A stretch of 64,000 nt of DNA. Origin: Conexibacter sp. DBS9H8. Lineage in GTDB: Bacteria; Actinomycetota; Thermoleophilia; Solirubrobacterales; Solirubrobacteraceae. The DNA is taken from contig NZ_CP097128.1 in the NCBI RefSeq assembly GCF_023330685.1, positions 930,001-994,000 of the forward strand. Reading direction: 5' to 3'. Both the position numbers and the translations under genes were made by a program. This document shows, one piece after another, positions 7,040 to 56,499 of the stretch (position 1 is the stretch's first letter; each line of letters begins with the position of its first letter). The notes under the pieces were generated by a model. It made no database searches. It saw only the letters and a program-made list of their open reading frames with translations, and was not told the DNA's origin.

Positions 7040-8254
7040 TCAGGCCAGAGCGGGGGTGACCGCCGCCCCGGCGCTCAGCAGCTCCGCGTAGACCCCCTCG
7101 GTCTGGCCGGCTACCTGGCGCCAGTCAAAGCGGGCGGCGTGGGCCCGCCCGGCGGCGGCCATCGCCGCCCGGCGGGCGGGCGCGTCAAGCAGGCCGGCGA
7201 GCGCGCCGGTGAGGGCGCGAACGTCCCCGGGCGGGACCCGCACGGCGACCCCGGGGGCGTCGGTCACCTCGCGCAGACCGCCGGTGTCGGTGACGATCAC
7301 CGGACAGCCGCAGGCCATCGCCTCGAGCGGGACGATCCCGAAGGGCTCATACAGGGACGGGACGACGGTCACGTCGGCGGCGCGGTAGAGGCCGTGGAGG
7401 GTGTCGTCGTCCACTCGGCCGAGGAAGACGCCCGCCTCGCGCAGCCCGAGGCTCTCCGCCTGGGCGTGCAGCTCCGCCTCCGCCGTGCCGGTCCCGGCGA
7501 GCAGGAACCGGACGGGGCGTCCGGCGGCGACGAGCGCGGCGATCGCCTCGAGGCTGACGTGGAAGCCCTTCTCATAGACGAGCCGGCCGACGAGCAGCAC
7601 GAGCGGCTCCCCGCCGGGGGCGTGGCGGCGTCGCAGCGCTGCGACGTCGGTGCCGGGGGCCACCTCAAGCTCAGCCGGGGCGATCCCGTTCGGGATCGCG
7701 CTCACCCGTCCGGGGGCGAGCCCGAACACGCGGCGGACATGGCCGGCCATGTACTCCGAGCAGCAGATCACGTGACCGGCGGTGCGGACCATCCGCCGCT
7801 CCGCGCGGTGGATCGCCCGCTGCGGGTGGGTGTGGACCCAGCCGTTGTGGCGCCCGAACTCGGTCGCGTGCACGGTGACGAGCCACGGGAGGTCATGCGC
7901 GGCGGCGAGCGCCTCTGCGGCGGGGGCGACCATCCAGTCGTGGGAGTGGATGAGATCGAAGCGGCCGCCGCCGGCCAGCGCGGCACCGCGGGCAAACAGC
8001 CGCTCGTTGAGCTCACCGACCCAGGCCATGAACCCGTCGAGGTCGGCGCTGAACGGGGCGATCGGCACCCGGTGCACGTGCACCGGTCCGCGCCCGGACG
8101 CCTCGGGCTCCCCGGCGTCCTCGGTCCCGGCCCGGGTGAGCACCGACACGTCGTGCCCGGCGGCGGCGAGGCCGGCGGCGAGCTGGGTGACGTGGCGGCC
8201 GAGGCCGCCCTCGATCACGGGCGGATACTCCCAGGAGAGAAGCAGGACCCGCAT
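7040..8254 (-). CDS. GT4 glycosyltransferase, glycogen synthase / maltose-1-phosphate synthase-like (GlgM/GlgA actinobacterial type)
   Basis: This 404-residue GT-B enzyme begins MRVLLLSWEYPPVIEGGLG, the donor-side glycine loop seen in the actinobacterial GT4 'glycogen synthase' group. The retaining GT4 signature EPFGIVPLEAMACG is near residue 305-320. In mycobacteria the related GlgM joins ADP-glucose and glucose-1-phosphate to give maltose-1-phosphate for GlgE; others in the family extend alpha-1,4-glucan. As the last gene of a glgE operon, a GlgM-like role is plausible but unproven. It starts eight bases after the treY stop. No glgC (ADP-glucose pyrophosphorylase) lies in the window. Confidence 0.82.
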   Translation of the reverse strand: MRVLLLSWEYPPVIEGGLGRHVTQLAAGLAAAGHDVSVLTRAGTEDAGEPEASGRGPVHVHRVPIAPFSADLDGFMAWVGELNERLFARGAALAGGGRFDLIHSHDWMVAPAAEALAAAHDLPWLVTVHATEFGRHNGWVHTHPQRAIHRAERRMVRTAGHVICCSEYMAGHVRRVFGLAPGRVSAIPNGIAPAELEVAPGTDVAALRRRHAPGGEPLVLLVGRLVYEKGFHVSLEAIAALVAAGRPVRFLLAGTGTAEAELHAQAESLGLREAGVFLGRVDDDTLHGLYRAADVTVVPSLYEPFGIVPLEAMACGCPVIVTDTGGLREVTDAPGVAVRVPPGDVRALTGALAGLLDAPARRAAMAAAGRAHAARFDWRQVAGQTEGVYAELLSAGAAVTPALA

Positions 8255-41351: not shown

Positions 41352-41615
41352 ATGGCCTACGTCATCGCCGAGCCCTGCATTGGCACCAAGGACAACTCGT
41401 GCGTTGAGGTCTGTCCGGTCGACTGCATCCACCCGACGCCGGATGAGCCCGACTACGACAAGGTCGAGCAGCTCTACATCGACGCGGAGGAGTGCATCGA
41501 CTGCGACGCCTGCGTGGAGGCCTGCCCGGTCGACGCGTGCTTTGCCGAGGATCAGCTGCCCGACGAGTGGCAGAAGTTCGCCGGGATCAACGCGGAGTTC
41601 TTCCGCAAGCGCTGA
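41352..41615 (+). CDS. fdxA: Ferredoxin, 7Fe ([3Fe-4S][4Fe-4S]) type
   Basis: This 87-residue electron carrier starts MAYVIAEPCIGTKDNSC. Cysteines are at 9, 17, 21, 25, 48, 51, 54, 58 and 63. The spacing Cys9-x7-Cys17-x3-Cys21-Pro rather than CxxCxxC at the first site indicates a [3Fe-4S] cluster there, with Cys58; Cys21, 48, 51 and 54 would hold the [4Fe-4S] cluster. This matches mycobacterial and Azotobacter-type 7Fe ferredoxins. AGAAGGAAG lies 13-21 bases before the ATG. It stands alone in its own unit. Confidence 0.93.
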   Translation: MAYVIAEPCIGTKDNSCVEVCPVDCIHPTPDEPDYDKVEQLYIDAEECIDCDACVEACPVDACFAEDQLPDEWQKFAGINAEFFRKR

Positions 41616-41651
41616 CACCCGGCCTGGGCCGGGGGGGGCGGGCCGACCGGC

Positions 41652-42683
41652 CTACGCGCCCGCGGGCGCGCTGGCACGGTCAGCGTCGGTGGCCTTGAGC
41701 ACGCCGGCGCGGTTCTTGTGGTCAGCCTCGTAGGCGGCGACCCGCCGGGCGAGCCCGTCATCGCCGGCGCGCAGAACGGCCTGGATCTCGGTGACGGTCA
41801 GCTCGTCATATCCGGGCCACGGCTCGGTGCCCCGGAGCGTGGAGATCCGCTGGGTCAGGGTGGACCGGTTCTGGTGCCGCCGCTCGTAGGCGTCGATCGT
41901 GGCCAGATCGACCTGGGAGAGGCGGCCGAGCTTGGCGGCGATCTCATCGACGGTCAGTGAGTCGTAGTGGGCGATCGCCAGGTCGTCCTCGCCGGCCAGC
42001 GCGCCCATGACCTCACCCTCCAGCCGTGCCACGCCCGGCAGTCGGCGCGCCCGGCGGGCGAACCGCTGGGTCGCCGCCACCGCCCGGCCGGCGGTGCGCC
42101 TGGCCGCGCGACGGGCGTCCTGCACCGCCTCTCCGGCACCGGTCGTCGCGCTGTCATAGGAGGGATCCCCGTCAACGGCGGCGACCATCGCCTCAGTGAG
42201 CTGGGGCAGCACCCCGATGATCTGAGCGAGCATTCGCTCCTCCTCCGCGCGGATCGCGCCGGCAAGCTCGGCGGTCTCCGGATCGCCGACCCGGCGGGCG
42301 AGACGCTCGATGACCGTGTACATGGCGATCTCCAGCGACTCGCTCGCACATGCGTCCCGGGCGTTCTTGAGGACCTTCTCCTCCCCGCCGGAGCCGCGCA
42401 ACAGGTCAAACGGGGTCTTCCCGAGCGCCAGCGCCTGGCCGGTGATGTTCTCCATCAGAGCAACGGCGGCGCTCAGCGGGCGCCCGCCGCCGCTGAACTC
42501 GCCGAGCCGTTGAGCGAGCCGTGAGGAGTGCTGACGGGTCTCCTCGAGGTGGGCGCTGAGCGCCGTGCGGTACTCCCCTCGTGGCGTCATCGCGATCTGA
42601 GCCTCCAGGACGCGGGTGAGCGCGTCCTCGACGGCCCGGGCCTCAGTCAGGTACTGCCGGAGTTTCTGCTGTGCCGCAATCAT
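41652..42683 (-). CDS. DUF892 (YciE/YciF ferritin-like) protein with C-terminal repeats
   Basis: The 343-residue protein has an N-terminal four-helix ferritin-like region of the DUF892 family, about residues 1-165 (helices LTEARAVEDALTRVLEAQIA and EIAMTPRGEY-like, KNARDACASESLEIAMYTVI, GAIRAEEERMLAQIIGVL). An Ala/Arg-rich linker follows. The C-terminus carries two similar ~55-residue units, each starting YDSLTVDEIAAKL or YDELTVTEIQAVL and containing AYERRHQNR or AYEADHKNR. DUF892 proteins are linked to stress responses and may bind metal. ATG 42683 is chosen; a TTG four codons upstream is possible. Confidence 0.8.
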   Translation of the reverse strand: MIAAQQKLRQYLTEARAVEDALTRVLEAQIAMTPRGEYRTALSAHLEETRQHSSRLAQRLGEFSGGGRPLSAAVALMENITGQALALGKTPFDLLRGSGGEEKVLKNARDACASESLEIAMYTVIERLARRVGDPETAELAGAIRAEEERMLAQIIGVLPQLTEAMVAAVDGDPSYDSATTGAGEAVQDARRAARRTAGRAVAATQRFARRARRLPGVARLEGEVMGALAGEDDLAIAHYDSLTVDEIAAKLGRLSQVDLATIDAYERRHQNRSTLTQRISTLRGTEPWPGYDELTVTEIQAVLRAGDDGLARRVAAYEADHKNRAGVLKATDADRASAPAGA

Positions 42684-43031
42684 CAGGACATCCAATCTCG
42701 TCAGAAGAGGTGGGCGGCCCGCCGTCGATACGACCGACTGACGGCGTCAACGGGGCCATCCGGGGTCACACCCAGTGCTACCCCGAATCGCCGCGGCCCA
42801 CGCGACGGGGTCGCTGATCGGCCCCGCGGGAAACGGTCGGGCGCTGTTCCGGGAACGTGTTCGCTCATACGTCCGTCGAGTCGCCGGGCGGCCTGAGCGG
42901 TCGCTCCCAGCCGGCGCCCGGTCGGGTCCGCGTCAGAAACGGCCGCGCCGACGTGGTGGCGGACCCGGTGTTGGCCCCCGGGCCAAGCCATCCGGTCCCC
43001 GGGGCCAAGCAAGAACCGTCCGTGCGCGCCG
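42684..43031. promoter_or_regulatory. Divergent intergenic region with a palindrome upstream of the GGDEF/HD-GYP gene
   Basis: No gene is seen in about 350 bases. TTGGCCC-CC-GGGCCAA at 42971-42986 is a perfect 7-base-arm palindrome, and GGCCAAGC recurs at 42981-42988 and 43003-43010 beside CCCCGGGG. These lie 20-60 bases before the plus-strand start and may be a regulator site. Confidence 0.35.
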
Positions 43032-44912
43032 ATGAGGCGAGGGATGCCCCTTTCCCGATGCGACCTGCTTGACAGCTACACGGATATCGTGGGGGCGACG
43101 ACGGTCGGTGACTGCAAGCAGCGCATCGAGACACACGCCCGCCTGCTGTTCGGGGCACGACAGGTGACCGTCCGTCTCTGTGACGGTCGTGACAGGGCGC
43201 CCGGGCTCGTGCTCGTCGCCCGCGAACGGCTCGTCGGGACGATGCAGCTCGCCTGGCCGGAAGGGTGGGAGCCCGACTCAGAGACCGACGCCGAACTGCT
43301 CGCCGCCTTCACCGCCCACGCCGCGATCGCGCTCGACAACGTCCGGCTGCTTGAGGAGCATCACCGGCGCGCCCGCTCCGATCCCCTGACGGGCCTGCTG
43401 AACCGTGGCGAGTTCCAGGAGACCCTCGCGCGTCTGCTCACGTCCGACCCGACGGGCCCGGAGTGGCCTGTCGGCCTCATCGTCATGGATCTCGACCGCT
43501 TCAAGGCGATCAACGACGGCGGTGGGCACGCCGCCGGGGACCGGCTCCTGCGCGCGACCGCGGCGGCGCTGACCGGCGTGTGTCGCGCCTCCGATTCCGT
43601 CTTCCGGCTCGGCGGTGATGAGTTCGCGGTCGTCCTGCCCGGCGCCGGCGCAGCGGATGCGACGGTCATCGCCGAGCGGGCCGCCGCGGCGATCGCTCGC
43701 CTGGACGGGTCATCGGGCGTCTCCTGGGGTGTGGCCAGCGTGCCCGACGATGCGATGACCCGGGACGCGCTCGTCCGGATCGCCGATGCCAACATGTACG
43801 CGCACAAGGGACGCCCGCAGACGGCCGCCAGGATCCATGATCGTGACGGCACCGAGCGACTTGAAGTCGCCTGCCGGCTCGCGTCGCGACTGACCGAGCT
43901 GCGTGACCCGCGCGCGATCGCGGAAGCGGTCGTTCACGAGCTCCATGCCGCGTTCGGCTACTACCTCGCCGTCATCCACCGCCTCGATGAGGACGGGATG
44001 CTTCGGATCCTCGCCGGGGCGGGACCGCTGACGGAGGAGGACCACAACTTCCTTGCCTGGGTGCAGCCGGTCAGCTGCGGCGTCAACGGGCGCGTCGTAC
44101 GCAGCGCGCAGTCGGCTCTCGTCAACGACACGCGACTCGATCCGGACTACCTCGGCACGGACGCCAGCGTCAACCCGGGGTCGGAGCTGGCGGTCCCGAT
44201 CCTCATCGACGGCACCGTGTGGGGTGTGCTCAACCTCGAACAGCTCGCCACGCATGCCTTCGCTGAGGATGACGTGCTGCTCGCTGAGACGGTGGTGGCC
44301 CAGGCGGCTGCGGCGCTGCACCGCTGCGCGCTGCTCGAGGACATGGAGGGGTCATTCGGCACGACTCTCGCGCTGCTCTGTGACGCGCTCGAGACAAAGG
44401 ACCCCTACACCGCCAACCATGCCCAGCACGTTGCCGACATCGCCGAGCAGACGGCGGTGCGGATGGATCTGGCCGATCCCCAGCGTCGCGCCCTGCGCTT
44501 CTGTGCGCTGCTACATGACATCGGCAAGCTCGGGATCCGCACGGAGCTGCTGACCAAGCCCTCAGCGCTGACCCCCGAGGAATATGAGGAGGTCAAGCAG
44601 CACTCGGTGATCGGCGCCGCGCTGCTCACACGCGTGCCCCTGCTCGTTGACATCGCGCCGCTCGTCGGCGCTGTCCACGAGCGATGGGACGGCCGCGGAT
44701 ACCCGCACGGCCTGAGCGGATCACAGATTCCCATCGAATCCCGGATCGTCGCAGTCTGCGACGCGTGGCACGCGATGGTCTCGGACCGCCCCTACCGCCG
44801 GGCGCTGTCCAGTGAGGATGCGCTCGCCGAGCTCCAGCGACACGCCGGCTCCCAGTTCGACCCCGCCGTCGTTCGCGCGTTCGTCACCGGCAAGCCGGCC
44901 GCTGCGCCGTGA
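43032..44912 (+). CDS. GAF-GGDEF-GAF-HD-GYP bifunctional c-di-GMP synthase / phosphodiesterase
   Basis: The 626-residue protein joins four domains. A GAF-like region spans about 10-112. The GGDEF domain (about 115-265) has DPLTGLLNR, MDLDRFKAIND and an intact FRLGGDEFAVVLP, with RASD five residues before GGDEF, the inhibitory I-site. A second GAF domain spans about 280-435. The HD-GYP domain (about 440-620) has NHAQHVADIA, LLHDIGKLGI near 493 and HERWDGRGYPHGLSG near 552. Both catalytic motifs look complete, so it could make and break c-di-GMP. No membrane segment. The start at 43032 has no clear ribosome site; ATG 43044 is an alternative. Confidence 0.9.
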   Translation: MRRGMPLSRCDLLDSYTDIVGATTVGDCKQRIETHARLLFGARQVTVRLCDGRDRAPGLVLVARERLVGTMQLAWPEGWEPDSETDAELLAAFTAHAAIALDNVRLLEEHHRRARSDPLTGLLNRGEFQETLARLLTSDPTGPEWPVGLIVMDLDRFKAINDGGGHAAGDRLLRATAAALTGVCRASDSVFRLGGDEFAVVLPGAGAADATVIAERAAAAIARLDGSSGVSWGVASVPDDAMTRDALVRIADANMYAHKGRPQTAARIHDRDGTERLEVACRLASRLTELRDPRAIAEAVVHELHAAFGYYLAVIHRLDEDGMLRILAGAGPLTEEDHNFLAWVQPVSCGVNGRVVRSAQSALVNDTRLDPDYLGTDASVNPGSELAVPILIDGTVWGVLNLEQLATHAFAEDDVLLAETVVAQAAAALHRCALLEDMEGSFGTTLALLCDALETKDPYTANHAQHVADIAEQTAVRMDLADPQRRALRFCALLHDIGKLGIRTELLTKPSALTPEEYEEVKQHSVIGAALLTRVPLLVDIAPLVGAVHERWDGRGYPHGLSGSQIPIESRIVAVCDAWHAMVSDRPYRRALSSEDALAELQRHAGSQFDPAVVRAFVTGKPAAAP

Positions 44913-45022
44913 AGCGGTGTGGGAGCGCCGGCATTGAGATCCACCGCCGGGAACCTCCGGGGGACCCGTGCCCGCGCACCTGCTCGCCCGCTGCCGGCCA
45001 CCGCCTCCCGCAGCTCCACGCG

Positions 45023-45061
45023 CCGCTTCCGTCAGCGCGCCTGCACCGGCCCCGGAAGCGG
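45023..45061 (+). promoter_or_regulatory. Inverted repeat upstream of the FN3-like secreted protein gene
   Basis: CCGCTTCCG (45023-45031) and CGGAAGCGG (45053-45061) are perfect nine-base arms around 21 bases, ending 23 bases before the ATG. It may be a leader hairpin or the terminator of the upstream gene. Confidence 0.35.
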
Positions 45062-45084
45062 TGAACTTCCCTAGACTCCGGAAG

Positions 45085-46740
45085 ATGAAGCGCCTTGTCC
45101 TGATGGTCGTCGCGCTCGCGGCGACGGTCGGTCTGCTCAGCGCCCCGGCGGCGCTTGCCGCGACCGCCAGCGGCACCCCGACGGTCACCACCGGGCCGGC
45201 CTCACAGGTCACGCCGACGACGGCGACCGTGTCCGGGACGGTCAATCTCAACGGCGCCTCCACCTCGACGGCGTCGCTGTCGAGCACCTGTTACTTCGCC
45301 TACGGGACGACGACGAGCTACGGGTCGACCGCCCCGTGTGCGACCGCGCCGAGCGCGACGGGCACCTCGACGGTCACCGCCAACCTGAGCAACCTCACCG
45401 GCGGGCAGGTCTACCACTACGAGCTGGAGATCGTCACCGGCGGCCTGCTCGGCGTCGGCGCCACGACCACCGGCGGCGGGGATGCGAGCTTCATCACCCC
45501 GAGTGCGTCGGTGCCGCCGCAGCTGGCCACCACCGCGGTCAGCGACCTCGGCGGCAGCGGCGTGACCCTCAACGGGACGGTCAACCCGGAGCAGTGGGGC
45601 ATCAGCTCCTGCTCCTTCAGCTACGCGGCCAACGGCGCTGCGGCGACCGTCGTCAACTGCGCGAACCTGCCGAGCCCGGGGGCGACCACCCAGCCGGTGT
45701 CCGCGCCCGTCACCGGCCTCAGCCCCGGCACGACCTACACCTACGACCTGATGATCGTCTACGGAGCCGGGAAGGGAACGACCCTGTCGACGGCCAGCAG
45801 CGGCTCCTTCACCACGCTCGCGGCGACGATCGGCACCCCGGCGAACCTCACCTCCACCTCCGCGACCCTCAACGGCACCGTCGACCCGGAGGGGCAGACC
45901 GTCACCGCCTGCGCCTTCTACTACGGCGTCTCCGGACCGCAGCTGCAGACCGTCCCCTGCACCCTCGCGGCCGACCAGATCACCGGCACCAGCCCGGTCG
46001 CAGTCAACGCGAACGTCACCGGCCTGACCGCGAACACGAAGTACATCGACACGGTCGTCCTCACCACCGCCCAGGGACCGGTGATCGCCACCCCGGCGAC
46101 CTTCACCACCCCGCCCGTGCCGCCGCAGCCGAGTGCGACGACCCTGGCCGCGACCGGGGTCGGTCCGACCGCCGCGACGCTGCGGGCGACCGTCAACGCC
46201 AAGGGGCAGGGGGTCCGCGCCTGCGAGTTCGAATGGGGCATCAACCCCTTCAGCGCCGGCTCGACCCCCGGCACGGACCTCGCGGTCACCCAGCTGTGTG
46301 GCAACACCCCCGCCGACACCGGCGCCCAGACGGTGACGGCCAGCCTCCGCGGGCTCGCCCCCCACACCCGCTACTACTTCCGGGTCCTGTTCCTCACCTA
46401 CGGCGGCTACGTCGTCGCCAACGCTCGGTCCTTTGTCACTCCCGCTGCCGGCCACGGCGGACGCGTCCCGGCCCTGCCGAACACCCGGATCCTCGCCGCG
46501 AGCATCAGCCCCGCCGCCCACACCGCCCGCTTCCGGCTCGGCGCCTCCGGCCCGCGGGCGACCCGCTTTGTCTGCGCCCTCGCCCCGGTCCGCCACGGCA
46601 AGGCCGGCCCCGCCCACTTCCACGCCTGCCGTGCGCCGGTCACCTACCGCCGTCTGCGTCCCGGGCTCTATCAGTTCTCGGTGCGGGCGGGCGACGCCCA
46701 CGGCTACGGCCCGGTCCGCACCCGCCGGTTCCGGATCTGA
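45085..46740 (+). CDS. Secreted protein with repeated FN3-like domains
   Basis: The 551-residue protein has a signal peptide (MKRLVLMVVALAATVGLLSA, cleaved near ALAA). Four repeats of about 100 residues follow, each with a TVSGTVNLNG, TLNGTVNPEQWG, TLNGTVDPEGQ or TLRATVNAKGQG strand, a CxF-x-YG segment and a GLSPGTTYTYDL-like end. Each module holds a Cys pair (for example CYFAYG to CATAP), so disulfides are likely. The basic C-terminal ~100 residues (HTARFRLGASGPRATRFVCA) resemble bacterial Ig-like 'tail' modules. The modules match those in the protein at 28595-30880. CCGGAAG precedes the ATG. The role is presumably extracellular adhesion or scaffolding. Confidence 0.82.
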   Translation: MKRLVLMVVALAATVGLLSAPAALAATASGTPTVTTGPASQVTPTTATVSGTVNLNGASTSTASLSSTCYFAYGTTTSYGSTAPCATAPSATGTSTVTANLSNLTGGQVYHYELEIVTGGLLGVGATTTGGGDASFITPSASVPPQLATTAVSDLGGSGVTLNGTVNPEQWGISSCSFSYAANGAAATVVNCANLPSPGATTQPVSAPVTGLSPGTTYTYDLMIVYGAGKGTTLSTASSGSFTTLAATIGTPANLTSTSATLNGTVDPEGQTVTACAFYYGVSGPQLQTVPCTLAADQITGTSPVAVNANVTGLTANTKYIDTVVLTTAQGPVIATPATFTTPPVPPQPSATTLAATGVGPTAATLRATVNAKGQGVRACEFEWGINPFSAGSTPGTDLAVTQLCGNTPADTGAQTVTASLRGLAPHTRYYFRVLFLTYGGYVVANARSFVTPAAGHGGRVPALPNTRILAASISPAAHTARFRLGASGPRATRFVCALAPVRHGKAGPAHFHACRAPVTYRRLRPGLYQFSVRAGDAHGYGPVRTRRFRI

Positions 46741-46801
46741 GGCTTCGGCCACCTACGGGACAGTTTCCAATAGCCGCAGCACCTGGCGATTGGGGAACCG
46801 A

Positions 46802-46830
46802 AAGGCGGGGTCTGCACAGCTGCCCGCCTT
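46802..46830 (+). terminator. Hairpin terminator after the FN3-like gene
   Basis: AAGGCGGG (46802-46809) pairs with CCCGCCTT (46823-46830), followed by CTTGTGTC. It lies 62 bases after the stop codon. Confidence 0.6.
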
Positions 46831-46878
46831 CTTGTGTCAATGCCCGCCCTTCCCTGCAGCGAGCTGACCTTTCGACTC

Positions 46879-46898
46879 GCCCCGAAAATCTGCGGGGC
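46879..46898 (-). terminator. Hairpin at the stop codon of abiEii
   Basis: GCCCCG and CGGGGC pair across AAAATCTG immediately past the TAG of the minus-strand toxin gene. Short stem, so moderate confidence. Confidence 0.45.
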
Positions 46899-47653
46899 TA
46901 CGAGCCGCCGGCGGCCACGATGCTGGCGATGAGGCTGTTAGCCCAGATGATCGCTTCCGTTATGTCGGGGATCACGCTGAGTCCTTCGGCAGCGCTCGCG
47001 TAGACGAGGGTTGCCTCTTCATCGAGGATCTGAAGATCGACGAGATCGTGTGCTCGCTCGTTCTGACCGGTTCGCTTACTCACCGATGTGCATGCGTGCA
47101 GCTTCTGGGCGACCTGGTGTTCGGCCGCCATGACGGGAACAGCCTCAGGTTCGGGCAGGCCGAGTTCAGCGAAGAGATCAATGATGTCCCGTGCGAGCCG
47201 CTTCTCGGCCGTTTCTGTGCTTCCGACCTCGTCGCGCCCCAGCTCGAACTTGATCTTCGCGAAGGGCTTCTTCTTGTACTCCAGGTGAATCTCGAAGCGC
47301 TGCATCGCGTAGTCGTCCGGGACGTCTTCGGGTGCCCGGGCTTCGAGTTCGGTGAGCGTGCCAGTGAAGTCGTTCCAGCCAGCTTCAAGCGCAGCGCTGA
47401 GCTGTTTGACGTAGTCGGCAAGTTCGACCTTCGCTGCGCGCGCGGCGTCGAAGTCCGGGGTAAATCGGCTGGCCGACTCCCCGACTCGCAGTTTCATCGC
47501 CGTGCCGCCCTTGACCACGCCGGGTGGCATCAACTGACCGACGATGGTGTTTGCCACCGTGCGATGAACACGTTGGGCGGTCGTCCCGTGCGCGTTGGCG
47601 TAGACGCCGATCCGCTGGTTCAGGTTGTTGAGCTTGCCGGGCGGTTTGGGCAT
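46898..47653 (-). CDS. abiEii: AbiEii/AbiGii nucleotidyltransferase toxin (type IV toxin-antitoxin)
   Basis: The 251-residue protein has the nucleotidyltransferase motif VVKGGTAMKLR near residue 50 followed by SRFTPDFDAAR, the two acidic residues after the GG loop that define the AbiEii/AbiGii (DUF1814) family. Later EHQVAQKLHACT and RAHDLVDLQIL match the family motif with conserved Lys and Asp. Such toxins nucleotidylate cell targets such as tRNA acceptor ends and can block phage. The start is adjacent to the antitoxin stop (TAGATG). GC content is lower than in the flanking genes, consistent with transfer. Confidence 0.88.
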   Translation of the reverse strand: MPKPPGKLNNLNQRIGVYANAHGTTAQRVHRTVANTIVGQLMPPGVVKGGTAMKLRVGESASRFTPDFDAARAAKVELADYVKQLSAALEAGWNDFTGTLTELEARAPEDVPDDYAMQRFEIHLEYKKKPFAKIKFELGRDEVGSTETAEKRLARDIIDLFAELGLPEPEAVPVMAAEHQVAQKLHACTSVSKRTGQNERAHDLVDLQILDEEATLVYASAAEGLSVIPDITEAIIWANSLIASIVAAGGS

Positions 47654-48205
47654 CTACTTGCCGTTCTCGATGGCAAGCACCACTCCATCGAGTTCCTTCA
47701 ACGGCAGCAGGCCTCGTTGAGCCGCATCGCGAGCGGCCTCGACCAACCGGTCGCGCATCACCGTTCCCCGGCAATCCAGCAGCGCCTGGGTGATCGTGGT
47801 GCCGGGGATGCCGTCGAAGTACTGACGTTCGGTTTCCGGAGCTGTATCGCGGACCACCTCGATGAACTCGGGGAGCTGTCGCCGCGGGCGACGACGAACC
47901 CCAACCCGGATCTTGCGAGGATTGACGAGAGCCAAGTTGTTGAGAGCGAGCACGGCGTCGCCCACAAGATGAGCGTCTTCCCCGACGCGGAGGACCGCTT
48001 CCAAGAACTGTTCCCTCCCCGTGTAGGGGAAGTCCTCAAAGCGGTAGAGGCCATGAGCGATGTGCTCAATACCTCCGCGCTGGGTGAGTTTGCGCAACTC
48101 CTGTGCGGGCACACCGAGCTCGCCGGCATCGCCGGTCGTGACGTATCCGAGCCGATCAGCCGCGCGTTCACGCAGAGTCCGTCGGTATGTCGTCGCAAGT
48201 GCCAT
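47654..48205 (-). CDS. abiEi: AbiEi antitoxin / autoregulator (type IV toxin-antitoxin)
   Basis: The 183-residue protein has an N-terminal winged helix: YVTTGDAGELGVPAQELRKL then GIEHIAHGLYRF, the usual AbiEi start. The C-terminal part, with AVLALNNLALVNP and GIPGTTITQALLDCRG, is the conserved antitoxin domain. It directly precedes abiEii. AbiEi proteins repress their own operon by binding inverted repeats upstream; a fitting repeat lies at 48226-48241. Confidence 0.87.
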   Translation of the reverse strand: MALATTYRRTLRERAADRLGYVTTGDAGELGVPAQELRKLTQRGGIEHIAHGLYRFEDFPYTGREQFLEAVLRVGEDAHLVGDAVLALNNLALVNPRKIRVGVRRRPRRQLPEFIEVVRDTAPETERQYFDGIPGTTITQALLDCRGTVMRDRLVEAARDAAQRGLLPLKELDGVVLAIENGK

Positions 48206-48247
48206 ACCTTCAAAATAGCAGAACAGTCCCGAAAACGGGACGGTTTT
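48206..48247 (-). promoter_or_regulatory. abiE promoter and operator region
   Basis: GTCCCG-AAAA-CGGGAC (48226-48241) is a perfect hairpin or operator 21 bases upstream of the abiEi ATG. A second inverted pair AAAAC (48232-48236) and GTTTT (48243-48247) overlaps it. On the minus strand TGCTATTTT, an extended -10-like element, lies between operator and start, then GAAGG. This fits negative autoregulation by AbiEi, by inference. Confidence 0.5.
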
Positions 48248-48742
48248 GTAAGTCTGAGATCGGGGACATTAGCTGTGTGGTGGTCACGGCTAACAAGCAC
48301 CAAGCGGCGGCGTACGCGGACACGGGCGTACTCGCCGAGGATGCCCAGGAGGTACGGCGAAGCCGCCGAGCGCACCGGACTTGGGGAGCCCTGCCGCCGT
48401 CAAGACGGCCACGCGACTCGCCACCCGATACCCCCGCGTCGCCGCACGACGGCCAGCAGCTCACTCTCCAAGCAGACTGCGGCCTCCCGACAAGGGAGGC
48501 TCAGTTCTTCCCCGAACTGCCCAGAAGTCGGCGCAGGCCGTCAGGAATCGCCAGCAAAAGCGAATTGAACCCCGGTCCGCACCGTCCAGAAGGTCCCCGT
48601 GAAGCAGAACAGACGCCCTTCAATCCATATTGAAAAGAGAAGCGTCTCACTGTCGATACGTGGCTCAACGGTGACCTGACCACAGTCGCGGCCGCCCGAA
48701 GCCGCGCGGCGCGGGTGGATTGCGTAGACGTGGGAATCTACA
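48248..48742. other. Non-coding stretch between two toxin-antitoxin modules
   Basis: About 500 bases without a convincing gene in either strand. Just before the plus-strand antitoxin, GTAGA (48724-48728) and TCTAC (48737-48741) form an inverted repeat, part of the imperfect ATTGcGTAGA...TCTACAAT, a likely operator for that module. Confidence 0.45.
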
Positions 48743-49000
48743 ATGTGGGCTATGTCAGCGACGACGACCATCCGGGTCAGTGAGCGCGCACGCGATCGGA
48801 TCAACCAGCTCGCTCGCGCCGCCTCCCAGACCACCATCGAATATGTCGACCAGATGGTGAACCGTCTCATGGACGAAGAGCTCCTGAACGCGATCGTCGC
48901 GTCACTCGACGATCCAGGACTCGCCGAGGATGCGGCAGAGTTGGACGGAACGTTGATGGACGGTCTCGACCCCAACGAGGACTTCAGCGCGTGGCGCTAG
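48743..49000 (+). CDS. Antitoxin of a MazEF-like module (ribbon-helix-helix type)
   Basis: The 85-residue protein has TTTIRVSERARDRINQLA at the N-terminus, a ribbon-helix-helix strand and helix, then a long acidic C-terminus (DDPGLAEDAAELDG...DPNEDFSAW) expected to neutralise the toxin. ATG 48743 is used; ATG 48752 is equally possible. Its stop overlaps the toxin start by ten bases. A palindrome directly upstream is a candidate operator. Confidence 0.85.
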   Translation: MWAMSATTTIRVSERARDRINQLARAASQTTIEYVDQMVNRLMDEELLNAIVASLDDPGLAEDAAELDGTLMDGLDPNEDFSAWR

Positions 49001-49338
49001 CGCACCCACCACGTCAGGGGGAGGTGTGGTGCTGTGTGCTCGACCCGGTGGTCGGCAGTGAGATCGCCAAGACCCGGCCCGTCCTCATCGTGAGCGTCGA
49101 TGAGATGAACGTGCACCGGGCACGACGGTCGATCGTCGTCCCGCTCACGAGCACGCAACGGCCGGCGGGAGTCCCGATCGAACTCGAGGTCAAGGGAGTC
49201 CCGCGGGTCAGCTATGCCGAGGCCTATCACGTGCGGACCGTCAGCCACGATCGGATGACGACCCGGTTGGGAACCGCGAGTCAGGAGGCGAGGCGGGCCG
49301 TCTCGGCCCAGCTCGAACTTCTCACCCGTACAGCGTGA
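48991..49338 (+). CDS. MazF/PemK-family endoribonuclease toxin
   Basis: The 115-residue protein shows RQGEVWCCVLDPVVGSEIAK, then KTRPVLIVSVDEMN and IVVPLTSTQRPAGVPIELE, the ordered MazF/PemK core, and AEAYHVRTVSHDRM in place of the usual D-S-x-x-x-x-x-Q-x-R-x-x-D. The arginine and Ser/Thr positions of the RNA cleavage site are present. It is intact, unlike the mazF remnant near 28 kb. Start GTG 48991 lies within the antitoxin gene, the standard coupling. The family cleaves single-stranded RNA at short specific motifs. Confidence 0.87.
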   Translation: MALAHPPRQGEVWCCVLDPVVGSEIAKTRPVLIVSVDEMNVHRARRSIVVPLTSTQRPAGVPIELEVKGVPRVSYAEAYHVRTVSHDRMTTRLGTASQEARRAVSAQLELLTRTA

Positions 49339-49348
49339 TCAGCCTCAC

Positions 49349-49547
49349 GGCTCAGACCATCGGCAGCGACATCCCGACCGGCTTGGCCGGCGCCGCCACC
49401 GACGCCATCGGCAGCACGGCGGTGTCCATCGCGATCAGGCGCTTGGCTGCGCTCGTGAGCGCAGCCGCGGCAGCGTCCTCGGGCGCGGACAGGACGACGG
49501 GCAGCCCGCCGTCTGACTGCTCACGCAGGGCGAGGGTGAGCGGCACC
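49349..49547. repeat. Direct repeat, left copy (duplicate of the mrp 3' end)
   Basis: These 199 bases align without gaps to 52594-52792 at a constant offset of 3245. By eye I count about 11 mismatches (~94% identity); 49357-49447 is identical. It brackets the GH35 gene together with the right copy and ends just before that gene's promoter. Confidence 0.9.
49352..49546 (-). pseudogene. Truncated mrp fragment (last 64 codons)
   Basis: The minus-strand frame reads PLTLALREQSDGGLPVV at its start and ends KPVGMSLPMV then TGA. It equals the C-terminus of the intact Mrp at 52597-53727 except three residues, for example Leu for Phe in VVLSAP and a final Val for Ala. Most of the DNA differences are silent. 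No ATPase domain precedes it, so it cannot function alone. Confidence 0.9.
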
Positions 49548-49563
49548 GGGGAAGCGGCTCACT

Positions 49564-49592
49564 TTGACATCCCCGGTCACTGCGCCTAGCCT
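49564..49592 (+). promoter_or_regulatory. Sigma-70-type promoter for the GH35 gene
   Basis: TTGACA (49564-49569) is a perfect -35 hexamer; TAGCCT (49587-49592) follows after 17 bases as the -10. It begins 17 bases inside the repeat boundary and gives a leader of about 60 bases to the GTG start. Confidence 0.6.
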
Positions 49593-49660
49593 CCGGCGAG
49601 GCTGACCGCGGCGCTGCCCTGCCGGGTTGAGCGGGTCGGTCGGTACGGGAGAGGTTGGCG

Positions 49661-52513
49661 GTGCGGGAGATCAGCAGGCGAACGTTCGTCAAGGCGGCTG
49701 GGGCGGCTGGCGCGCTCCTGCTCGCAGGTCCCGCACCCGCGCGTGGCTTGCCAGGACCGCCGGCCGGGCGCCGCCTCCGGCCACGTCCCCGACCGGTTCC
49801 CGTCGGACCCCGTCCCTATCTGCTCGACACGCCGGTGTTCGGCGGGGAACTGCAGTACTTCCGCACAGACCCGGCGACGCTTCCGGACCGGCTCGCCCTC
49901 TGCCGGGAAGCGGCCTTCAGCGTGATCCAGACCTACGTCCCCTGGAACGTCCACGAGTTCTCGAGGGGGACGCTCGACTTTCAGGGCAGGACCCATCCAA
50001 TCCTGCCCAACGATCATCACCTCGACCCGTTCCAGTTCGGCGACTCGGTCGGGACCGGGGGGGTCAACACCTACGATCTCGGTCTGCAGGTCAACACCGA
50101 CCTTGAGACCTTTCTCGGGGCGTGTCGCGATTCCGGTTTCTCGGTCATCTTGAGGCCGGGACCGTTCATCTCCGACGAGTGGCGCAACGGAGGGATACCG
50201 GACTGGTTTCTCCAGGGCGCGCCCGCGGACACCTTCGAGTACGGTGCGGACGGCACCCCCCTGCTGGTCAGCCCGCCCTGGAGCAGCCCGCCCGCGGTCG
50301 CGGCGCTGCTCGGCGGCATGTCGCTGTACTACTTCCCCTCACCCAGCTACGCCTCCCCCTACTACCTGAGCGCCGTTCAGCAGTGGCTCCAGGGCTTCGC
50401 GGCGTTCGTTCGGCCCTGGCTGCACAGCAACGGCGGGCCGGTCGTCGCCGTCCAGGTCGACGATGAGACCTGCTTCTACTATCACTTCGGCGCCTTCGAG
50501 GTTGACTACAACCCGGCGATGGTCGCCCGCTACACGGCCGTGACGGGCCAACCGCCGCCGCGAGCCTGGCCGTCGCCGGCCCAGGGAATCGCCTCGCTGC
50601 GGCCCGCCTTTGCCTGGCAGCGGTTCAAAGCCGATCAGATCGGCACGTTTCTCGGCACGCTCGCGGGCGAGCTGCGCGCCGCCGGCGTCGACGTCCCGAT
50701 CACGCACGAGATGGAGCTGTCGCTGACCCCGCCGGCTGACTTCGCGGCTGACGCGGCGGCGGTGCTGCTCGCCCCCGAGCTCTATCCGGGCGCTGACGGC
50801 CCGGAGGCGATGCCGCTCATCGAGCTGACCGCCCAGTCGGCCCGAGCCGCGCAGCGCAACCGGACAAACGTCTGGTCGGCCGAGACCCAAGAGGGTGACA
50901 TGCTGCTGTCCAGCCTGCTGCTCGGAGAGGGGATCATCGGCTCGATCCAGTTCAACTACCAGCAGGGTGTCCCCGACGATGCGGTCGGCGTCAGCGGCCG
51001 GCTCGGTCAGGCCCTGCGGACCGCCGGCCGTCGCCTGACCGAGTGCCGGCGACGGGCCGACGTCGCGATCGTCTGGGACAACGACCTCGCCCACGCGCCC
51101 GTTGACTCTCAGCAGTGGGGGTTTGTCACAGATGTCAACGCGGTCATCGAGCATCACGTTCCGGCGCTCGCGACGCTGCTGCTGCGCGCCGGATACGCCT
51201 TCGACCTGCTGGACACGAGCGCAGCCGCCCCGGAAGATTACCTCGACTACCGGACGATCTTGCTCGCGTCTGCCGACATCCTGCCCCGCAGCGCACAGGT
51301 CAGCCTGGCTCGCTACGTGCGCCGGGGTGGACATCTCGTCTGCTGGGCCCAGCCGCCAAGCCTCGACGAGGACCTCGAGCCGTGTGCGATCCTCGCCCAG
51401 GCGTGCTTCGGCGAGCCCGTCGCCACCTTCTACCCCGAGCCGGCCCAGGAGATCGATGTGCTCGGTCACCCGGTGACGACCTATCTGGGGGTGCAGACGT
51501 TCTCCCTCTCCGCGCGGGCTGAGGCGATCGCTTCACGCGCCGGCGCACCGTGCGGTTACCGCCGCAGGGTCGGTCAGGGAGAGGCGGTGCTGCTCGGCAG
51601 CTGGCCGGCGGCTTACAACATCGCCTCCCGGTCAGGAGCGGTGCTCGAGGAGGTGCCCGGATCGGCCGCGGCCGATCCCGTCACCCAACTCGGACAGGTG
51701 GCCACCCTCGCCGGGAAGTACTTCGGTCCGCAGGCCGCGGCGGCGGTCCCCGCCGCGCTGACCAACGGCCCCGCGCAGACCTTCATCGTCTACGAGTACA
51801 CCAACCAGCGCCGCAGCAGCACCTATGTGCTCGCCGGCGGCGCGATCGCCTACTGGAACGGCGATCAGGTCGTCGGCCTGGTGCAGATCACCGCGGCGTC
51901 GGACGGAACCCCCCAGGTTCTCAACGAGATTCCCTACTGTCCGCCTGACGCCGCCCACGTCACCGCCATCCGGGCGCTCGTCGGTGCCCCGCCGGCGATT
52001 GAGAGCGTCGACCCGCGGATCCAGGCTCGGGTGCTCGATGCCCCCGACGGACAGGGCGCGACGGTGGTCGCCAACAACCGCTGGCCGGTGCCGGTCCCCC
52101 TCCGGCTCCGCACGCGCGTGGGAGCCAGAACAGTCGTGCTGCCGAGCCGGGGAGAGCTGACGCTGCCCGCAGAAACCGGGATCGTGCTGCCCGTCGACTA
52201 CGAGCTTCCCAACCAGGGGCGTCTGCTGTGGGCGACCGCACAGCTCCAGGGGGTGACTGCGCCGAACCGCTTGGCGGTCGCTCTGGCCCTGTGGGCCCCG
52301 GACACGGCCGAGATCGTTCTGCGGCTCCCGGGGCGCCTGCGGGTTGTGACTCTGGACGGCGCGCCGATCCGCCCGGTCCGGTCCGACGGCCGGGCCGTCA
52401 GCGTCGTCGTCGGCGCCGGCAGCCACACGCTGGAGGTGCGCTGGAACGAGCCGCGGCACCGGGCCAGGCGCCACCGCCGGGCCTGTGCTCGGCGGTGGCG
52501 GTCGGTGCGCTAG
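49661..52513 (+). CDS. Tat-exported GH35 beta-galactosidase-like glycosidase
   Basis: The 950-residue protein begins with a twin-arginine signal, SRRTFVKAAGAAGALLLAG. The catalytic barrel follows: GGELQYFRTDP near residue 60, then IQTYVPWNVHEFSRGTLDF with the GH35-typical W-N-x-H-E, and ILRPGPFISDEWRNGGIPDW. The acid/base motif, usually Q-V/I-E-N-E-Y, reads QVDDETC, so the acid Glu is kept but its Asn neighbour is Asp. The nucleophile may be the Glu in WSAETQEGD; this is less sure. Residues ~480 onward are beta domains. GTG 49661 follows GGGAGAGG; a TTG two codons upstream also fits. It lies between the two mrp repeats. Confidence 0.82.
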   Translation: MREISRRTFVKAAGAAGALLLAGPAPARGLPGPPAGRRLRPRPRPVPVGPRPYLLDTPVFGGELQYFRTDPATLPDRLALCREAAFSVIQTYVPWNVHEFSRGTLDFQGRTHPILPNDHHLDPFQFGDSVGTGGVNTYDLGLQVNTDLETFLGACRDSGFSVILRPGPFISDEWRNGGIPDWFLQGAPADTFEYGADGTPLLVSPPWSSPPAVAALLGGMSLYYFPSPSYASPYYLSAVQQWLQGFAAFVRPWLHSNGGPVVAVQVDDETCFYYHFGAFEVDYNPAMVARYTAVTGQPPPRAWPSPAQGIASLRPAFAWQRFKADQIGTFLGTLAGELRAAGVDVPITHEMELSLTPPADFAADAAAVLLAPELYPGADGPEAMPLIELTAQSARAAQRNRTNVWSAETQEGDMLLSSLLLGEGIIGSIQFNYQQGVPDDAVGVSGRLGQALRTAGRRLTECRRRADVAIVWDNDLAHAPVDSQQWGFVTDVNAVIEHHVPALATLLLRAGYAFDLLDTSAAAPEDYLDYRTILLASADILPRSAQVSLARYVRRGGHLVCWAQPPSLDEDLEPCAILAQACFGEPVATFYPEPAQEIDVLGHPVTTYLGVQTFSLSARAEAIASRAGAPCGYRRRVGQGEAVLLGSWPAAYNIASRSGAVLEEVPGSAAADPVTQLGQVATLAGKYFGPQAAAAVPAALTNGPAQTFIVYEYTNQRRSSTYVLAGGAIAYWNGDQVVGLVQITAASDGTPQVLNEIPYCPPDAAHVTAIRALVGAPPAIESVDPRIQARVLDAPDGQGATVVANNRWPVPVPLRLRTRVGARTVVLPSRGELTLPAETGIVLPVDYELPNQGRLLWATAQLQGVTAPNRLAVALALWAPDTAEIVLRLPGRLRVVTLDGAPIRPVRSDGRAVSVVVGAGSHTLEVRWNEPRHRARRHRRACARRWRSVR

Positions 52514-52593
52514 CCGGACCGGCCTCCGGCGCTCTGGACGGCGAACCGGTCGCAGCGACGCCCGGCGCTGGAAGCCGGCCAGGACCGAACCGC

Positions 52594-52792
52594 GGCTCAG
52601 GCCATCGGCAGCGACATCCCGACCGGCTTGGCCGGCGCCGCCACCGACGCCATCGGCAGCACGGCGGTGTCCATCGCGATCAGGCGCTTGGCGGCGCTCG
52701 TGAGGGCCACGGCGGCCGCGTCCTCGGGCGCGGAGAAGACGACCGGCAGACCGCCGTCTGACTGCTCACGCAGGGCGAGGGTGAGCGGCACC
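52594..52792. repeat. Direct repeat, right copy (3' end of the intact mrp)
   Basis: Partner of 49349-49547. It begins three bases before the mrp stop codon complement and reaches 66 codons into mrp. Confidence 0.9.
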
Positions 52793-53727
52793 TGGGCGAG
52801 CAGGGGGACGTCGAGGTCCTCGGCGAGCAGGCGGCCGCCGCCCTCCCCGAAGATCGGGTAGGAAACACCCTCGGGGTTGGTGAAACCGGACATGTTCTCG
52901 ATCACGCCGCAGATCTCCAGCTCGAGCTTGGTTGCCATCTCCGCCGACCGCCGGGCGACGGTCTGGGCGACCGCCTGCGGGGTGGTGACGATGATGAACT
53001 TCGCCTGCGGAAGCAGCTGGGCGAGGGTCATCGAGACGTCGCCGGTGCCGGGGGGCAGGTCGATCAGCAGGTAGTCCAGGCGCCCCCACTCGACATCCTC
53101 GAGGAACTGCTGGAGGGCCTTGTGCAGCATCGGGCCGCGCCAGACGACGGCGGCCTCCTCCTCCACGAAGAAGCCGATCGAGACGACCTTGATCCCCTCC
53201 GGGCCGACAAGCGGCTCGATCTTGCGGGCCGCGTTCGCGTGCGCGCGGCCGCCGGAGAGACCGAACATCCGCGGCTGGGAGTAGCCCCACACGTCCGCGT
53301 CCATCACGCCGACGGACTTGCCCGCCCGTGAGAGGGCGGCGGCGAGGTTCGCGGTGACGCTCGACTTGCCGACCCCGCCCTTGCCCGAGCCGACGCAGAT
53401 GACGTGGGCGACCTCCGCGAGGGCGCCCTCAGGCAGGGTCGCCCGTCCGAGCTTGCCCCGCAGCGCCTGCTTCTCCTGGTCAGAGAGGACGTCGAAGGTG
53501 AGGTTGACCCCGGTCACCCCGTCGATCGCCCGGATCGCCGAGTTGACGCCGTTCTGGAAATGGTCACGGATCGGGCAGCCGGCCGTCGTCAAAGCGACGG
53601 TCACGTCGATGACGCCGTTGGCGTGGATCTCGACGTTGCGGACCATGCCGAGCGTCACGATGTCCTTGTGCAGCTCGGGGTCGATGACGGACCCGAGCGC
53701 CGTGTAGACCTGGTCTCTGGTGGGCAT
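52597..53727 (-). CDS. mrp: Mrp/ApbC family Fe-S cluster carrier ATPase
   Basis: The 376-residue protein has an N-terminal MIP18/DUF59 domain (TALGSVIDPELHKDIVTLGM, residues ~8-30) and a P-loop ATPase with CVGSGKGGVGKSSVTANLAA, DADVWGYSQPRMFG and DYLLIDLPPGTGDV. The Cys-x-x-Cys that follows ENMS in many Mrp proteins is absent (ENMSGFTNPEG), as in other actinobacterial versions. It is thought to carry or assemble Fe-S clusters. ATG 53727 is chosen over a longer frame because it gives the normal Mrp start. Its last 66 codons are duplicated at 49349-49547. Confidence 0.93.
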   Translation of the reverse strand: MPTRDQVYTALGSVIDPELHKDIVTLGMVRNVEIHANGVIDVTVALTTAGCPIRDHFQNGVNSAIRAIDGVTGVNLTFDVLSDQEKQALRGKLGRATLPEGALAEVAHVICVGSGKGGVGKSSVTANLAAALSRAGKSVGVMDADVWGYSQPRMFGLSGGRAHANAARKIEPLVGPEGIKVVSIGFFVEEEAAVVWRGPMLHKALQQFLEDVEWGRLDYLLIDLPPGTGDVSMTLAQLLPQAKFIIVTTPQAVAQTVARRSAEMATKLELEICGVIENMSGFTNPEGVSYPIFGEGGGRLLAEDLDVPLLAQVPLTLALREQSDGGLPVVFSAPEDAAAVALTSAAKRLIAMDTAVLPMASVAAPAKPVGMSLPMA

Positions 53728-55392: not shown

Positions 55393-56499
55393 TTAGCCGA
55401 CTGTCGCCGTCCCGAAGGCGATCTTCGTCACACTAGAGCTGAGCAGGGACGCTTGGCGGCTCAGCTGGGCGCCGACAAAGGCCACCGGCTTCTCCAGCTG
55501 GGTCGTGACGAAGCTGACGGGCTTCTCGAGCTGGCTGGAGACAAACGCGGTCGGCTTCTCCAGCTGGCTGGAGACGAACGCCGTCGGCTTCTCCAGCTGG
55601 GCGGAGAGAAAGCTGAGGGGATCATCGAGCTGAACGGTGATCACGCCGCGCTGGCGTTCGAGTTCGCTGCCGAGCTTCGCGGCCCGGCGCTCGAACCCAC
55701 CCGAGAGGGAGGAGAGGTCGCTCTCAATCCGCTTGGCGCGCTCCCGGACGGTCCGTTCGATCTGGCCGGCCTGATCACGGACCCGCCGTTCAATCCGGGC
55801 GCGCTGGTCCCGGACCTGGCGCTCGAGGCCCTCGCGGGCGCTCGCACCGCGCCGCTCGAAGCGCTCGAGCTCCTTGGCCAGGCTCTCCCGGGTCTCGAAC
55901 TTCGCGCCGAGGTCACGCAGGCTCGAGGCGACCTCATCCCGCAGGATCAGGCTCGCTCCGAGTGGCACGAGCATCGCCCGCTCGGCGACGACGGCGGCCT
56001 GGGCGACCGGGGTGCGCGCCTGGGTCGAGTCGCTCGGCGCCCGGGGCGGGGCGGCCGCGCCGGTGCGGGACCCGGGGGCTGGCTTCGGGCCCGCGCTCGC
56101 TCGCTTGGTGGCGGCCGGCTTGGCGCTGGTCGTCCGCCTGGTGGTCGCGGAGGTCTTGGCAGCCGTCCGCTTGCTCGCGGCGCCGGTCCCAGCCGTCTCG
56201 GTCGCCTTCGCGCCTGCGGCCGTCGTCTTCTTCGCGGCGGCGGCGGCGCTGCCCTTGCCGGCACGAGCCTTGGCGGTCCCGGTCGGAGCGGCGGCGCTCG
56301 CACGGGGTCGCGGCGTGCGCGCCGCGGCGCTCTGGGTGCCCGTGCCGGCCGCCCCGGCAGCGGCAGTGCGCCGAGGACGGCGGGGGGCGGTCGCCTCCGG
56401 GCTCGCGGGGGTGGCGGCGCCGGTGCTCTCCGGCGTCGTCGTCGCGGTCTCCGGGGCGGTGGATGAGGCGCCGGCCGTGGTCGGTGTGTTCTCAGGCAT
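55393..56499 (-). CDS. Histone-H1-like Ala/Lys/Pro-rich protein with coiled coil and 11-residue repeats
   Basis: I do not recognise a family. Residues 1 to about 165 are low-complexity Ala, Thr, Pro, Lys and Arg (AAAKKTTAAGAKATET), like histone H1 tails. Residues ~175-290 form a charged helix (LAKELERFERRGASAREGLE; RIERRVRDQAGQIERTVRER). About 295-350 has five or six units of 11 residues built on QLEKPTAFVSS, encoded by a 33-base repeat. Eleven-residue helical repeats occur in proteins that coat lipid surfaces, and the Lys/Ala tail resembles the DNA-binding tail of PhaF-type granule proteins, so a granule or nucleoid role is conceivable. Both are analogies only. Start ATG 56499. Confidence 0.7.
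   Translation of the reverse strand: MPENTPTTAGASSTAPETATTTPESTGAATPASPEATAPRRPRRTAAAGAAGTGTQSAAARTPRPRASAAAPTGTAKARAGKGSAAAAAKKTTAAGAKATETAGTGAASKRTAAKTSATTRRTTSAKPAATKRASAGPKPAPGSRTGAAAPPRAPSDSTQARTPVAQAAVVAERAMLVPLGASLILRDEVASSLRDLGAKFETRESLAKELERFERRGASAREGLERQVRDQRARIERRVRDQAGQIERTVRERAKRIESDLSSLSGGFERRAAKLGSELERQRGVITVQLDDPLSFLSAQLEKPTAFVSSQLEKPTAFVSSQLEKPVSFVTTQLEKPVAFVGAQLSRQASLLSSSVTKIAFGTATVG
55462..55626. repeat. Five tandem 33-base coding repeats
   Basis: Units start at 55462, 55495, 55528, 55561 and 55594. Each begins CAGCTGG or GAGCTGG and most end in GGCTTCTC. The central units (55528 and 55561) differ at only three positions by eye. They are in frame and code for the QLEKPxxFVxx repeats. 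Confidence 0.85.

What the first reader, a model, noticed from the sequence alone, without database searches (positions are those of the whole stretch)
49349..52792. GH35 gene bracketed by a ~199 bp direct repeat of the mrp 3' end
The last ~66 codons of mrp occur twice, 3245 bases apart and in the same orientation, with only the GH35 gene and its own TTGACA promoter between. Integrative elements often enter the 3' end of a conserved gene and restore it with their own copy. The two copies differ by about 11 mostly silent changes, which fits a copy from a related mrp more than a recent tandem duplication. No integrase is inside, so this could be a minimal cargo, a decayed element, or recombination at mrp.
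Basis: partly seen in the sequence, partly recalled or inferred. Interest (0 to 1): 0.72.

Follow-up and report, generated by a model that had tools for sequence, protein, structure and literature searches.

The report
Duplicated mrp stub beside foreign gene
A foreign sugar-cleaving enzyme gene sits between a core bacterial gene (mrp) and a leftover copy of that gene's last 66 codons, most simply a scar of recombination at a spot where several related species have also gained genes, not a recognisable mobile element.

Summary
The last 66 codons plus stop of mrp occur twice in the same orientation, 3245 bp apart (49348-49551 and 52593-52796, 94% identical), with only a GH35-type glycosidase gene between. 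GH35 is foreign: at E<=1e-10 no other of 399 class genomes has it. In 13 of the 15 same-genus genomes where both genes lie on one contig, mrp is followed within 6-345 bp by a convergent ferredoxin gene; here 11 kb intervenes (DUF892, GGDEF/HD-GYP, fn3, AbiE, MazF-type toxin-antitoxin, mrp stub, GH35). Two congeners carry other cargo between these genes and two more carry other genes beside mrp. So the spot is variable, and I saw no integrase in it. No other of 131 family genomes with an mrp C-terminus carries a partial second copy. The two copies are each other's closest relatives (100% support); most changes lie on the left copy. Best explanation: recombination at mrp (homologous on one side, illegitimate on the other) inserted GH35, pushing the old mrp 3' end and its old neighbour outward, as proposed for T6SS immunity-gene arrays. 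In-place duplication and an integrase event acting in trans are not excluded. The kind of event is known, so interest is low.

The parts
52597..53727 (-). mrp (NUBPL/ApbC-type P-loop ATPase), intact functional copy
   Evidence: PF10609 E=4e-89, PF01883; closest congener 78% aa identity
52593..52796 (-). right copy of the repeat: last 66 codons and stop of mrp plus 4 nt
49348..49551 (-). left copy: truncated mrp 3' end (stub), stop kept, 94% identical
49655..52513 (+). GH35-like glycosidase with Tat signal, distant from archaeal exo-beta-D-glucosaminidase
   Evidence: PF01301, PF22369; best PDB match 5gsm E=7.5e-39; absent at E<=1e-10 from the other class genomes searched
49554..49561 (.). GCGGCTCA, left edge of the GH35 segment; recurs at 52592
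   Evidence: 5 occurrences in 64 kb, chance of an 8-nt match between two random 20-nt stretches 0.008
52592..52599 (.). GCGGCTCA, right edge of the GH35 segment, overlapping the mrp stop codon
48743..49338 (+). putative antitoxin plus PemK/MazF toxin pair; toxin stop 13 nt from the stub's stop
   Evidence: PF02452 E=5e-21 for the toxin, no family hit for the small upstream protein; 72% nt identity to loci in G012 and G024
46898..48205 (-). AbiEii/AbiEi type IV toxin-antitoxin pair, low GC (62-63%)
   Evidence: PF08843, PF13338; PADLOC; GC
41352..41615 (+). ferredoxin gene, usual convergent neighbour of mrp in the genus

Best explanation
The structure is a scar of gene gain by recombination at the mrp locus. 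DNA carrying the GH35 gene next to an mrp 3' end recombined homologously with mrp on one side, while its other end was joined illegitimately inside the old mrp at about codon 311. The cell kept a whole mrp and gained GH35. The old mrp 3' end (204 bp) and its old neighbour (the MazF-type toxin-antitoxin pair) were pushed outward and left behind. Shown: the repeat, the foreign status of GH35, the empty site in congeners, the lack of an integrase. Inferred: the donor DNA, the two-sided mechanism and the order of events.
For: GH35 is lineage-specific: at E<=1e-10 none of the other 398 class genomes has it, among congeners only short 37-47% matches occur, and its nearest relatives are 59% and 48% identical in two actinobacterial MAGs, with no window neighbour gene beside it there. 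In 13 of 15 congeners with both genes on one contig, mrp and ferredoxin lie 6-345 bp apart. G024 (HD-GYP gene) and G004 (formate-THF ligase and a second gene) have other cargo between them, and G003 (NAD-epimerase-like) and G015 (fn3-like) have other genes next to mrp, with no integrase-like gene noticed. So the site gains genes without visible machinery. Whole mrp, GH35, stub, old neighbour is the order expected from displacement. The copy differences resemble divergence between functional alleles: 8/11 third positions (p=0.009 against 1/3); the closest congener pair has 0.76. Precedents: T6SS immunity arrays and Rhs orphan 3' ends, attributed to homology-facilitated illegitimate recombination (PMC5361080); integrase-free hotspots flanked by recombining core genes (PMC5635113).
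Against: No donor or conspecific genome is held, so the intermediate (toxin-antitoxin pair directly beside mrp) and the donor arrangement (mrp next to GH35) were not seen. The asymmetric branches (left 0.069, right 0.003) suggest decay of a stub copied from this very mrp, which needs no donor allele. Published rates of this recombination are low. The 8-bp repeat at the GH35 edges hints at a different short-homology joint.
Confidence: 0.48

Rival explanations
1. In-place duplication. GH35 was already downstream of mrp, and a replication template switch or partial tandem duplication copied 204 bp of the mrp 3' end to the far side of GH35, aided by the short repeat CGGCTCA/GCGGCTCA.
For: Both copies are sisters with 100% support and nearly all changes lie on the left copy. 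CGGCTCA occurs at 49348, 49555 and 52593. No donor allele is required.
Against: 8 of 11 changes at third positions and only 3 transitions are not what neutral decay of a stub should give (p=0.009). Differences are clustered, 10 in 58 bp (p=0.002). The joint at 49551/49552 shows no clear template match.
Confidence: 0.25
2. The toxin-antitoxin block (46898-49551) brought the stub: it was transferred from a close strain in which MazF lay next to mrp, and joined illegitimately beside a GH35 gene already present here.
For: The low-GC AbiE/MazF block ends at the stub (GC 61-64% against 69-72%); the allele-like divergence of the left copy.
Against: MazF-type genes in G012 and G024 are not beside mrp. 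No genome with toxin-antitoxin genes next to mrp was found.
Confidence: 0.15
3. Site-specific integration: an island used the mrp 3' end as attachment site and restored it with its own copy; the integrase acted in trans or was lost.
For: Repeat geometry, homology ending at the stop codon, mrp kept whole, and 12 PF00589 matches elsewhere in the genome.
Against: No recombinase within about 86 kb. No second example in 131 family genomes. Cargo at the same place in congeners has no mrp repeat. No relative of the GH35 protein in viral contigs.
Confidence: 0.1

Closest known systems
Displacement by homology-facilitated illegitimate recombination (T6SS immunity-gene arrays in Vibrio, Rhs/CDI orphan 3' ends; PMC5361080)
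   Same: A conserved gene acts as anchor, new DNA comes in beside it, and the old 3' part and old neighbour remain as a displaced tail.
   Different: Here the anchor is a housekeeping gene, there is one displaced stub rather than an array, and the gained gene is a glycosidase.
Integrase-free transfer hotspots flanked by core genes (Oliveira et al. 2017, PMC5635113)
   Same: Two conserved genes (mrp and ferredoxin) flank content that varies between species, and no mobility genes were found.
   Different: One genome per species is compared here, so turnover within a species and recombination rate in the flanking genes were not measured.
Genomic islands that integrate at the 3' end of a gene and restore it
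   Same: Direct repeat of a gene 3' end with the intact gene at one side.
   Different: No integrase, no second example at mrp, very small cargo, and a repeat whose far copy is the diverged one.

Membership tests
Integrative element at a gene 3' end | Encodes a tyrosine or serine recombinase | tested here: not met
   None among the genes of 41616-52596; nearest PF00589 at C1:892716-893198, about 86 kb from the repeat; PF00239 only at 544823 and 1416885
Integrative element at a gene 3' end | Direct repeat of the target gene end flanks the element and the gene stays whole | tested here: met
Integrative element at a gene 3' end | Same site used by related elements in other genomes | tested here: not met
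   No partial second mrp 3' end in the other 130 family genomes with a match; double matches elsewhere (G005, G374) span most of the query and are in long open frames; cargo in G024 and G004 shows no mrp repeat
Integrative element at a gene 3' end | Excises as a circle | not testable with these tools
   needs DNA or reads
Displacement by homology-facilitated illegitimate recombination | Homology (anchor gene) on one side of the gained DNA | tested here: met
   mrp is intact beside GH35 and its end is repeated on the far side
Displacement by homology-facilitated illegitimate recombination | Non-homologous joint on the other side | tested here: met
   Similarity stops at 49551; sequence from 49552 on does not resemble mrp
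Displacement by homology-facilitated illegitimate recombination | Short microhomology at the illegitimate joint | tested here: inconclusive
   GCGGCTCA lies 2 nt from the joint and at 52592, but the donor sequence is unknown
Displacement by homology-facilitated illegitimate recombination | Donor haplotype and pre-event haplotype exist | not tested
   One genome per species is held; no conspecific available
Integrase-free hotspot between core genes | Conserved flanking genes with variable content and no mobility genes | tested here: met
   Gap 6-345 bp in 13 congeners, 2.1 and 2.6 kb of other genes in two, 11 kb here
Integrase-free hotspot between core genes | Raised homologous recombination in the flanking core genes | not testable with these tools
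   needs several strains of one species

The most novel reading that the evidence does not exclude
The 3.2 kb unit is a minimal cargo element without its own integrase that uses the mrp 3' end as attachment site and is moved in trans by one of the host's other recombinases.
Probability: 0.05. Interest if true: 0.55.

Novelty: new member of a known kind. Interest (0 to 1): 0.2.

Why it matters
It is a fossil of how an uncultured-type actinobacterium can gain a gene next to a housekeeping gene without a visible mobile element, and it marks the mrp-ferredoxin interval as a spot where species of this genus gain genes. It adds an example and does not change any general view.

Tried and rejected
Relative of the GH35 protein in IMG/VR viral contigs: none. 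Other mrp 3' fragments in 146 family and 399 class genomes: none partial in the family; two double hits in distant draft genomes (G198, G254) were not followed. Further copies of the fragment in the own genome: none. Neighbour genes of the window beside the closest GH35 relatives (L059, L060): none. Recombination breakpoint in the functional mrp: similarity to G015 drops after codon 311, but G015 has an unusual mrp end distant from all others, so this says nothing about the window. Strong promoter or terminator around GH35: none found. Papers on islands inserted in mrp: no hit.

Full report
Observation. The window holds a 204-nt direct repeat, 49348-49551 and 52593-52796, 3245 bp apart and 94% identical. 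The right copy is the last 66 codons and the stop of mrp (minus strand, 52597-53727), the left copy a truncated stub with the frame and stop intact. The pair is the only such repeat in the 64 kb apart from an unrelated 33-nt array, and the fragment has no third copy in the 3.64-Mb genome. The only gene between the copies is 49655-52513, a Tat-signal GH35-like glycosidase (PF01301, GLMA_2nd). Its best solved relatives are archaeal exo-beta-D-glucosaminidases and beta-galactosidases, but it is far below the cut-off of the NCBI glucosaminidase model (148 of 1500 bits).

Foreign gene, empty site. In 399 genomes of the class only the own genome has this GH35 gene at E<=1e-10. Among 40 relatives three congeners show short 37-47% matches only. 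The two nearest relatives in GTDB genomes are 59% and 48% identical, in an actinobacterial and a Solirubrobacterales MAG, and no other window gene lies beside them there. In the genus, mrp is normally followed by a convergent 87-aa ferredoxin gene. Of 15 congeners with both genes on one contig, 13 have 6-345 bp between them. In the window the same ferredoxin (41352-41615) is 11 kb away. The interval holds a DUF892 protein, a GGDEF/HD-GYP protein, an fn3 protein, AbiEi/AbiEii, a MazF-type toxin-antitoxin pair, the mrp stub and GH35. The AbiE/MazF part is low in GC (61-64%, against 69-72% around it). G024 and G004 carry other genes between mrp and ferredoxin (an HD-GYP gene; formate-THF ligase with a second gene). 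G003 has an NAD-epimerase-like gene directly after mrp, and G015 a gene whose visible end reads as an fn3-like domain (my reading of the sequence). No integrase-like gene was noticed there, and no mrp repeat was found. The spot is therefore a variable place between two core genes.

No sign of an integrative element. Twelve tyrosine-integrase matches exist in the genome; the nearest is about 86 kb from the repeat. The two serine-recombinase matches are over 400 kb away. A search with the C-terminal 97 residues of mrp over 146 family genomes found a second, partial copy only in the own genome. The second matches in G005 and G374 span most of the query and lie in long open frames. A class-wide search agrees, except for two distant drafts with a second weak match that I did not follow.

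Origin of the two copies. In a tree of the region with 18 congeners the two copies are sisters with full support. The left tip is 0.069 long and the right tip 0.003, and at the differing sites congeners agree more often with the right copy. Both therefore come from this species or a very close strain, and the left copy carries most of the change. Polarity at saturated third positions is weak evidence. Two features do not look like plain decay. Eight of 11 changes are at third codon positions (p=0.009 against one third), close to the 0.76 seen between the two most similar congeners. Ten differences fall within 58 bp (p=0.002) next to a 91-bp identical run. I cannot decide between a displaced native end, an allele from a sister strain, and a copy made in place.

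The joints. An 8-mer, GCGGCTCA, stands 2 nt beyond the inner edge of the left copy (49554) and again at the outer edge of the right copy (52592), overlapping the mrp stop. It occurs five times in 64 kb, and two random 20-nt stretches share an 8-nt match with p about 0.008. This hints at a short-homology joint. It was noticed after the fact and is not proof.

Explanation. The order mrp - GH35 - mrp stub - old neighbour is what displacement by one-sided homologous recombination leaves behind. A published model for Vibrio T6SS immunity arrays and Rhs orphan ends describes the same logic (PMC5361080). Integrase-free hotspots between core genes are common (PMC5635113: half of hotspots lack evidence of mobile elements, 27% lack any mobility protein). 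One-sided recombination itself is rare but real (PMC3240628). I put this at about one half. In-place duplication, arrival of the stub with the toxin-antitoxin block, and an integrase event acting in trans share the rest.

Verdict. Real, lineage-specific, ordinary in kind.

Noticed in passing
55462-55632, inside ORF 55393-56499 (-): A 33-nt repeat (11-residue unit, 4 or more copies) in an Ala/Lys-rich protein next to the GNAT gene; partial homologs sit near mrp in several congeners.
   Followed up: partly
L058 (G015), mrp 3' end near 7446: G015 has an altered mrp C-terminus (ends MSLPVIS instead of MSLPMA) beside the end of an fn3-like gene, possibly another rearrangement at the mrp stop.
   Followed up: partly
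48743-49338; L098 and L099: The MazF-type toxin-antitoxin pair has 72% nt-identical copies in G012 and G024 at other chromosomal places, not beside mrp.
   Followed up: partly
41652-42695: DUF892 protein with DNA-level relatives in G016, G031 and at two places in G011.
   Followed up: no
G374:C1:2440290 and 4951272; G005:C409: G374 has two mrp C-termini in long open frames; G005 has a second, 47% identical mrp homolog, possibly a contaminant.
   Followed up: no
G198 and G254: Two distant draft genomes show two mrp C-terminal matches each, one of each pair in a short open frame; could be contig breaks.
   Followed up: no
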